Shown here: one piece after another, positions 4,018-62,312 of the stretch
Position numbering within the stretch: the first letter of the stretch is position 1
How the letters are laid out: each line of letters opens with the position of its first letter
Assembly: GCF_017094525.1 (NCBI RefSeq)
Contig: NZ_CP064788.1
Span: 2,651,030 to 2,715,029, forward strand
Length of the DNA stretch: 64,000 bases
Source: Halapricum desulfuricans
GTDB lineage: Archaea > Halobacteriota > Halobacteria > Halobacteriales > Haloarculaceae
Direction: 5' to 3'
Notes under the pieces: generated by a model
Databases searched by the model: none
Told to the model about the DNA's origin: nothing
What the model saw: the letters and a program-made list of their open reading frames with translations, nothing else
Translations under genes and position numbers: made by a program

Positions 4018-4103
4018 TCATAGTGACCGTTGTAAGTCTGTCCCGGATCGTCCGCACGCAGTCGTGCGGTTGCACCGGTACATCGGTACAACGGTCACTA
4101 TCA
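4018..4103 (+). mobile_element. Family I palindromic element, 80 bp, TCA target repeats, at the rpsJ stop codon
   Basis: The element occupies 4021-4100 between direct repeats TCA at 4018-4020 and 4101-4103. Its ends TAGTGACCGTTGTA and TACAACGGTCACTA pair perfectly over 14 bp, and an inner hairpin CCGCAC/GTGCGG is present. The right-hand TCA is, on the minus strand, the TGA stop codon of rpsJ. The uS10 C-terminus is complete (ends IVLED), so insertion happened in the stop triplet without changing the protein. It has no coding capacity and resembles a MITE. Confidence 0.8.
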
Positions 4104-22143: not shown

Positions 22144-22227
22144 TCATACTGCCGGCTGTAAGTTCGTAAAGATATTCGCCACCCCGGGGTGGCGAATTCC
22201 TTCAGTTTGTTACAGCCGGCAGTATCA
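22144..22227 (+). mobile_element. Family II palindromic element, 78 bp, TCA target repeats
   Basis: The element occupies 22147-22224 between TCA repeats (22144-22146, 22225-22227). The ends TACTGCCGGCTGTAA and TTACAGCCGGCAGTA pair perfectly over 15 bp. The core GTTCGTAAAGATAT is followed by an 11-bp perfect inner stem TTCGCCACCCC/GGGGTGGCGAA. The same core and length recur in the copy nested at 45210-45287. It lies between S-layer gene 2 and the TetR gene and touches neither. Confidence 0.78.
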
Positions 22228-45109: not shown

Positions 45110-45194
45110 TCATACGGTCGGTTGTAAGTCTGTTCCGGATCGATCGCATCCGTTATGCGATCGCACCGGTAAATCGTTACAACCGACCGTATCA
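45110..45194 (+). mobile_element. Family I palindromic element, 79 bp (tandem pair, left copy)
   Basis: The element occupies 45113-45191 between TCA at 45110-45112 and TCA at 45192-45194. The ends TACGGTCGGTTGTAA and TTACAACCGACCGTA pair over 15 bp, and the inner stem CGATCGCA/TGCGATCG is perfect. The right TCA is shared with the next copy, giving the order TCA-element-TCA-element-TCA. It fills most of the 312-bp gap between kae1-bud32 and the MFS gene. Confidence 0.82.
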
Positions 45195-45357
45195 TACAGT
45201 CGGTTGTAATACTGGTGGCGATACCATTTCGAACTGATCTGGCACGCCGCTGTGCCAGATATCTTTACGAACCTATAGCCACCAGTATAAGTCTGTTCCG
45301 GATCGATCGCACCCGTTATGCGATCGTACCGGTAAATCGTCACAACCGACCGTATCA
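45192..45357 (+). mobile_element. Family I palindromic element interrupted by a family II element, at the MFS stop codon
   Basis: The host copy runs from 45195 to 45354. After removing the 78-bp nested element plus one 3-bp repeat, it is exactly 79 bp, the same as its left neighbour. The host ends pair with two mismatches. Its right TCA (45355-45357) is the TGA stop codon of the MFS gene on the minus strand. Core bases (AAGTCTGTTCCGGATCGATC) match the left copy. Confidence 0.82.
45207..45290 (-). mobile_element. Family II palindromic element nested in family I, TAA target repeats
   Basis: The 78-bp element (45210-45287) lies between TAA at 45207-45209 and 45288-45290. The undisturbed family I sequence TTGTAAGTCTG shows a single TAA at this point, so the triplet was duplicated on insertion. 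Its ends TACTGGTGGC/GCCACCAGTA pair perfectly, and an inner stem ATCTGGCAC/GTGCCAGAT is present. On the minus strand it contains GTTCGTAAAGATAT, as does the copy at 22147. Confidence 0.83.
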
Positions 45358-46620: not shown

Positions 46621-46706
46621 TCATAGTGACCGTTGTACGTCTGTTCTGGATCCACCTGACGAAGCCGTGCGGTCGCGCCGGTAAATCGGTACAACGGTCA
46701 CTATCA
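46621..46706 (+). mobile_element. Family I palindromic element, 80 bp, at the AAA ATPase stop codon
   Basis: The element occupies 46624-46703 between TCA repeats (46621-46623, 46704-46706). The ends TAGTGACCGTTGTA/TACAACGGTCACTA are the same as at 4021 and pair perfectly; the inner stem is partly decayed. The right-hand TCA is the TGA stop codon of the ATPase gene. It separates that gene from the MFS gene downstream. Confidence 0.8.
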
Positions 46707-54677: not shown

Positions 54678-54762
54678 TGATACGGTCGGTTGTAAGTCTG
54701 TTCCAGAGCGATCGCATCCGTTATGCGATCGTACCGGTAAATCGTTACAACCGACCGTATGA
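54678..54762 (+). mobile_element. Family I palindromic element, 79 bp, TGA target repeats
   Basis: The element occupies 54681-54759 between TGA repeats (54678-54680, 54760-54762). The ends TACGGTCGGTTGTAA/TTACAACCGACCGTA are identical to the copy at 45113, and the core is nearly so. It is downstream of hsp20 but not at its stop codon. It is the only family I copy in which the flanking triplet reads TGA rather than TCA on the strand carrying the core. Confidence 0.8.
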
Positions 54763-62226: not shown

Positions 62227-62312
62227 TCATACGGACTGCTGTCCGTCTGTTCCGTATCGACCGCCCGTAATCGGGCAGTTAGAGCGGTACATCGGTACAG
62301 CAGTCCGTATCA
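62227..62312 (+). mobile_element. Family I palindromic element, 80 bp, at the transducer stop codon
   Basis: The element occupies 62230-62309 between TCA repeats (62227-62229, 62310-62312). The ends TACGGACTGCTGT/ACAGCAGTCCGTA pair perfectly but differ in sequence from all other copies. The inner stem GCCCG/CGGGC also differs, while GTCTGTTCCG and CGGTACATCGG are kept. The right TCA is the TGA stop codon of the transducer gene. It lies between convergent genes. Confidence 0.8.

What the first reader, a model, noticed from the sequence alone, without database searches (positions are those of the whole stretch)
45207..45290. Family II element nested inside a family I element
The family I copy at 45195-45354 is split by a 78-bp family II element flanked by TAA, and the unsplit neighbour shows TTGTAAGTCTG with one TAA. 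Removing the insert and one TAA restores a 79-bp element. This is direct evidence of transposition and of the order of events.
Basis: seen in the sequence. Interest (0 to 1): 0.75.

Follow-up and report, generated by a model that had tools for sequence, protein, structure and literature searches.

The report
Mobile mini-element nested inside another one
In a salt-loving archaeon, one tiny gene-less jumping element has jumped into another. The same kind of jump into the same spot has happened repeatedly and independently here and in related genera, so that spot is a real insertion hot spot rather than a one-off accident.

Summary
Window 45195-45354 is a 79-bp family I element (TIRs TACGGTCGGTTGTAA..., outer TSD TCA) split by a 78-bp family II element (45210-45287) flanked by TAA/TAA. 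Removing the insert and one TAA leaves 79 bp. Both families are TNA-duplicating MITEs: 81 of 88 copies in this genome have identical 3-bp flanks, 80 of them TNA. The relative G001 has clean empty sites for two other composites and one plain family I copy. At the window locus itself G001 carries a deletion scar.

The finding is larger than reported. Three composites in this genome use the same GGTTG|TAA site and orientation. The L002 and L003 hosts are identical to different sets of five intact copies, and the inserts are of different subtypes, so these are separate insertions. The same site is hit in Haloarcula sp. LUM.49, Halobacteriales QS_5_68_33 and another genus.

The target consensus is G-N-C-TSA-G-N-C, like the 9-bp preference of PIF/Harbinger MITEs. 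The hit site is the best of four TNA sites in family I, which explains the choice of site. Frequency is only modestly above an intergenic expectation here. No partner transposase was found. Nested MITEs are already known, including in haloarchaea.

The parts
45110..45112 (.). TCA, left target duplication of the upstream intact family I copy
45113..45191 (+). intact 79-bp family I element (TIR TACGGTCGGTTGTAA / TTACAACCGACCGTA), identical to four other genomic copies
45192..45194 (.). TCA shared between the tandem family I copies
45195..45354 (+). composite: family I host (45195-45209 and 45291-45354) split by family II
45207..45209 (.). TAA, inner target duplication, left copy
45210..45287 (+). 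78-bp family II element (TIR TACTGGTGGC / GCCACCAGTA)
45288..45290 (.). TAA, inner target duplication, right copy
45355..45357 (.). TCA, outer target duplication, right copy
54681..54759 (+). another intact family I copy, TSD TGA
   Evidence: its listing gives the TSD start, 54678
22147..22224 (.). family II' copy (TACTGCCGGC tips), TSD TCA

Best explanation
Families I, II and II' are non-autonomous miniature inverted-repeat elements (MITEs) moved in trans by a transposase that duplicates a 3-bp TNA target with an extended palindromic preference G-N-C-TSA-G-N-C. A family I copy inserted at a TCA; later a family II copy inserted into the TAA 13-15 bp inside its left end. That TAA is the best-matching TNA in family I, so it has been hit repeatedly and independently by family II-like elements in this genome and in related genera. 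Shown: TSDs, ends, empty sites, recurrence, different host and insert subtypes. Inferred: transposase in trans, DDE type, and target preference as the cause of the hot spot.
For: TSD identity in 81 of 88 copies, TNA without being required. Clean empty sites in G001 for composites L002 and L003 and for intact copy L013. Three composites at the same site and orientation. The L002 host is identical to five intact copies and the L003 host to five different ones; inserts differ by 9-25 of 78 positions and L003's insert is the II' consensus. Same-site nesting in G021, G086 and G147 with matching inner TSDs, including a 107-bp element of another family in L207. The target matrix ranks the hit site best of the four TNA sites in family I, 87th percentile of all TNA. 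The second-best TNA is also hit once, in G086 (L318).
Against: No transposase with matching ends was found among 21 PF01609 hits in the genome and no DDE_Tnp_4 in six genomes. TAA is a rare target overall (5 of 92, three of them these composites). The target matrix does not predict all three nestings falling in this one site rather than in the more numerous II copies. At the window locus G001 shows a scar, so the host insertion there is probably older than that split.
Confidence: 0.85

Rival explanations
1. The 13-bp subterminal position is hit because a transposase or host protein bound to the resident element's TIR directs new insertions next to it (self-targeting landing pad), not because of the target sequence alone.
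For: In G000 all three nestings are in family I although II/II' copies are more numerous. In G086 about 8 of 29 family I copies are hit at this site (counted). Elements with other tips also carry inserts about 12 bp in (L205, L222, L223). Tandem arrays sharing a TSD are common.
Against: The site is the best TNA in family I by the ordinary target matrix. The mirror-image site at the right end, equally close to a TIR, is hit far less often (L203, L214). In G000 the excess is only 3 against 0.6-0.9 expected if 10-15% of the genome is tolerated (P 0.02-0.06).
Confidence: 0.25
2. The composite arose once and spread as a 160-bp mobile unit; its insert then diverged or was replaced by gene conversion.
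For: Same site and orientation in the three composites of this genome; the outer TIRs are still present.
Against: The L002 and L003 hosts are each identical to different sets of intact copies, the inserts belong to different subtypes (II versus II', 24-25 of 78 differences), and no two composites share an insert. Both insert orientations occur in other genera (read).
Confidence: 0.07
3. Intact family I copies are derived from composites by precise excision of II, reversing the order of events.
For: Precise excision is usual for PIF/Harbinger-type MITEs (PMC2836001).
Against: Composites are a small minority (3 of about 27 two-ended copies), carry different inserts, and an intact copy of the same subtype exists in the relative G001 (L337).
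Confidence: 0.03

Closest known systems
Haloarchaeal small mobile repeats and MITEs of Haloquadratum walsbyi (PMC3119063)
   Same: Short transposase-free elements with inverted terminal repeats, high copy number, frequent insertion of one element into another with a strong site preference (SMR-A into near-terminal palindromes of PATEs and IS605-type elements); one SMR-B family is only 80 bp.
   Different: SMRs are reported to make no target duplication; these elements make a clear 3-bp TNA duplication and nest in elements of the same general kind. Direct sequence comparison was not made.
Tourist-like MITEs of the PIF/Harbinger superfamily (PMC2836001; PMC2213677)
   Same: 3-bp TSD, TIRs of about 14 bp or longer, a 9-bp extended target preference, nested elements known (Jiang and Wessler 2001, by title).
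   Different: Eukaryotic, TSD TTA/TAA; here TCA/TGA dominates and no Harbinger-like transposase was found.
IS5-family insertion sequences with TNA targets (IS1031/IS427 groups) and their MITEs
   Same: TNA-type 3-bp duplication (own knowledge; similarity of the PIF/Harbinger transposase to IS5 is stated in PMC2213677).
   Different: No IS5 copy with these ends was found in the genome.

Membership tests
MITE (prokaryotic) | short, no coding capacity, terminal inverted repeats, many copies | tested here: met
   77-80 bp with TIRs; families I and II each number tens of copies or more in the genome
MITE (prokaryotic) | target site duplication of fixed length | tested here: met
   identical 3-bp flanks in 81 of 88 copies; 4-10 bp never identical
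MITE (prokaryotic) | shares ends with an autonomous transposon that supplies the transposase | tested here: inconclusive
   none of the 21 DDE_Tnp_1 loci has matching ends; other transposase families not searched except DDE_Tnp_4
PIF/Harbinger-IS5 superfamily element | 3-bp TNA/TWA duplication with extended palindromic target | tested here: met
   TNA in 80 of 81; G-N-C-TSA-G-N-C
PIF/Harbinger-IS5 superfamily element | DDE transposase of that superfamily encoded by or matched to the element | tested here: not met
   no DDE_Tnp_4 in six genomes and no matching-ended IS; hence not filed as a member
Haloquadratum SMR | inverted terminal repeats without target duplication | tested here: not met
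   3-bp duplication present (definition)

The most novel reading that the evidence does not exclude
Each element carries, about 12 bp inside its TIR, a dedicated landing pad recognised by the transposition machinery of sister families, so that elements stack into one another up to three levels (for example L205, L213) and family I works as a sink for new insertions across haloarchaeal genera.
Probability: 0.2. Interest if true: 0.55.

Novelty: new member of a known kind. Interest (0 to 1): 0.36.

Why it matters
It gives a clean record of recent MITE transposition in haloarchaea, with empty sites, a measurable 9-bp target preference, and a natural recurrent hot spot in which one mini-element intercepts others. 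This makes the question of whether mobile elements divert each other away from genes directly testable. The general kind (nested MITEs, element-on-element targeting) is already known.

Tried and rejected
Composite as a spreading unit: rejected on host and insert subtypes. L127 looked like an autonomous II' element (1491 bp with II' ends) but is a II' copy interrupted by a 1403-bp IS present in five copies, ISH8-like by its ends and long duplication. PF01609 transposases have other ends. PF13359: none. Plasmid searches for a long element with family I ends found only short pieces and no transposase; a script to check those ends failed and was not rerun. A viral-contig scan for II' ends gave 70 scattered stretches, not followed.

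Full report
Observation. The sequence at 45195-45354 is TCA[TACAGTCGGTTG TAA [78 bp] TAA GTCTGTTCC...CCGACCGTA]TCA. The insert 45210-45287 has inverted ends TACTGGTGGC/GCCACCAGTA and is flanked by TAA on both sides. The neighbour 45113-45191 is an uninterrupted 79-bp copy with TTGTAAGTCTG. Removing the insert and one TAA gives 79 bp.

What the elements are. The window lies in a 2.89-Mb single-contig genome. Family I (79 bp) has roughly 28 copies; family II and its sister II' together have about 100. With boundaries set only by the inverted ends, 81 of 88 copies have identical 3-bp flanks: 37 TGA, 35 TCA, 5 TAA, 3 TTA, 1 TGC. Outside the triplet the target prefers G-N-C on the left and G-N-C on the right. 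These are the marks of true target duplications, since TCA...TCA is a direct and not an inverted repeat.

Empty sites. In the close relative G001 the sites of composites L002 and L003 and of the intact copy L013 are occupied by nothing: the flanks are contiguous across the insertion point, with one slightly diverged copy of the target triplet. At the window locus G001 keeps ...CGGCCGTATACCGACCGTATCACGCC..., that is, one element end and its TCA, so the relative carries a deletion scar there and the host insertion is probably older than the split.

Recurrence. Two further composites exist in the genome, both with the insert in the same TAA and the same orientation. The restored host of L002 is identical to five intact copies (L014-L018) and that of L003 to five others (L009-L013). 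The inserts of L001 and L002 differ by 9 of 78 positions and from L003's by 24-25; L003's insert is the II' consensus. They are therefore separate insertions. A fourth place, L067, has II' abutting an end of family I with unmatched triplets, read as nesting followed by loss.

Other genera. The left junction pattern was found repeatedly in G021, G086 and G147 (the reversed-pattern control gave 0 hits in G021 and G086 and 4 in G147). Complete composites with matching inner triplets include L193, L199, L207 (G021), L212, L215 (G086) and, by eye, L225 (G147). L199 and L207 use TCA where the host has TCA, and L207 carries a 107-bp element of another family. Both insert orientations occur. In G086 about 20 intact pairs stand against about 9 nested copies, one of them at the second-best TNA (counted by eye from the listed places). 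An exact scan of GTDB genomes found the junction only in these and one related metagenome-assembled genome.

Why this site. A target matrix built from the non-nested copies scores the four TNA sites of family I at 1.19, -0.05, -2.33 and -3.08. The hit site is the best, at the 87th percentile of all TNA sites. This explains the choice of site and the preference for the left end. It does not fully explain frequency: with about 105 insertions and 28 hosts, 0.04-0.09 nestings are expected if the whole genome is open, and 0.6-0.9 if only 10-15% is tolerated and the site weight is applied; 3 are seen (P from about 1e-5 to 0.06). The open fraction is an assumption, not a measurement.

Mechanism. Most likely a DDE transposase acting in trans inserts these elements at TNA. 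The type is inferred from the 3-bp target with its extended preference, which resembles the 9-bp preference of PIF/Harbinger MITEs (PMC2836001), whose transposase is similar to that of IS5 (PMC2213677). No partner was found: the 21 DDE_Tnp_1 loci have other ends and DDE_Tnp_4 is absent.

Known context. In Haloquadratum walsbyi 192 cases of one mobile element inside another were counted, with small mobile repeats hitting near-terminal palindromes of other elements (PMC3119063). Nested MITEs are also known in plants (Jiang and Wessler 2001, cited in PMC2836001). The present case is a well-documented new member of that kind, with a TNA duplication and a recurrent single site across genera.

Noticed in passing
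window 4018-4103, 46621-46706, 62227-62312; loci L112, L113, L120, L121: Elements with a conserved family I interior (GTCTGTTCCGGATCGACCGC...CGGTAAATCG) but different paired outer tips (TACGGTCGG, TAGTGACCG, TAGTGATTATTG and others) across genera: the outer 9-10 bp change together at both ends while the interior stays.
   Followed up: partly
L127 1004-2498 (genome about 2844 kb): A family II' copy is itself split by a 1403-bp IS present in five copies (ISH8-like by ends and long duplication).
   Followed up: yes
L001, L004, L079, L089, L100: Tandem elements of the same or different families sharing one TSA triplet (GTAT-S-ATAC junctions) are frequent.
   Followed up: partly
L205 (G021), L213 and L214 (G086): Apparent three-level or double nesting: a third family sits in the insert or in the other end of the host.
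   Followed up: partly
L154 (G001), around the kae1-MFS gap: Deletion scar keeping one family I end, between short CCGTAT repeats, like the repeat-mediated deletion described in Haloquadratum.
   Followed up: partly
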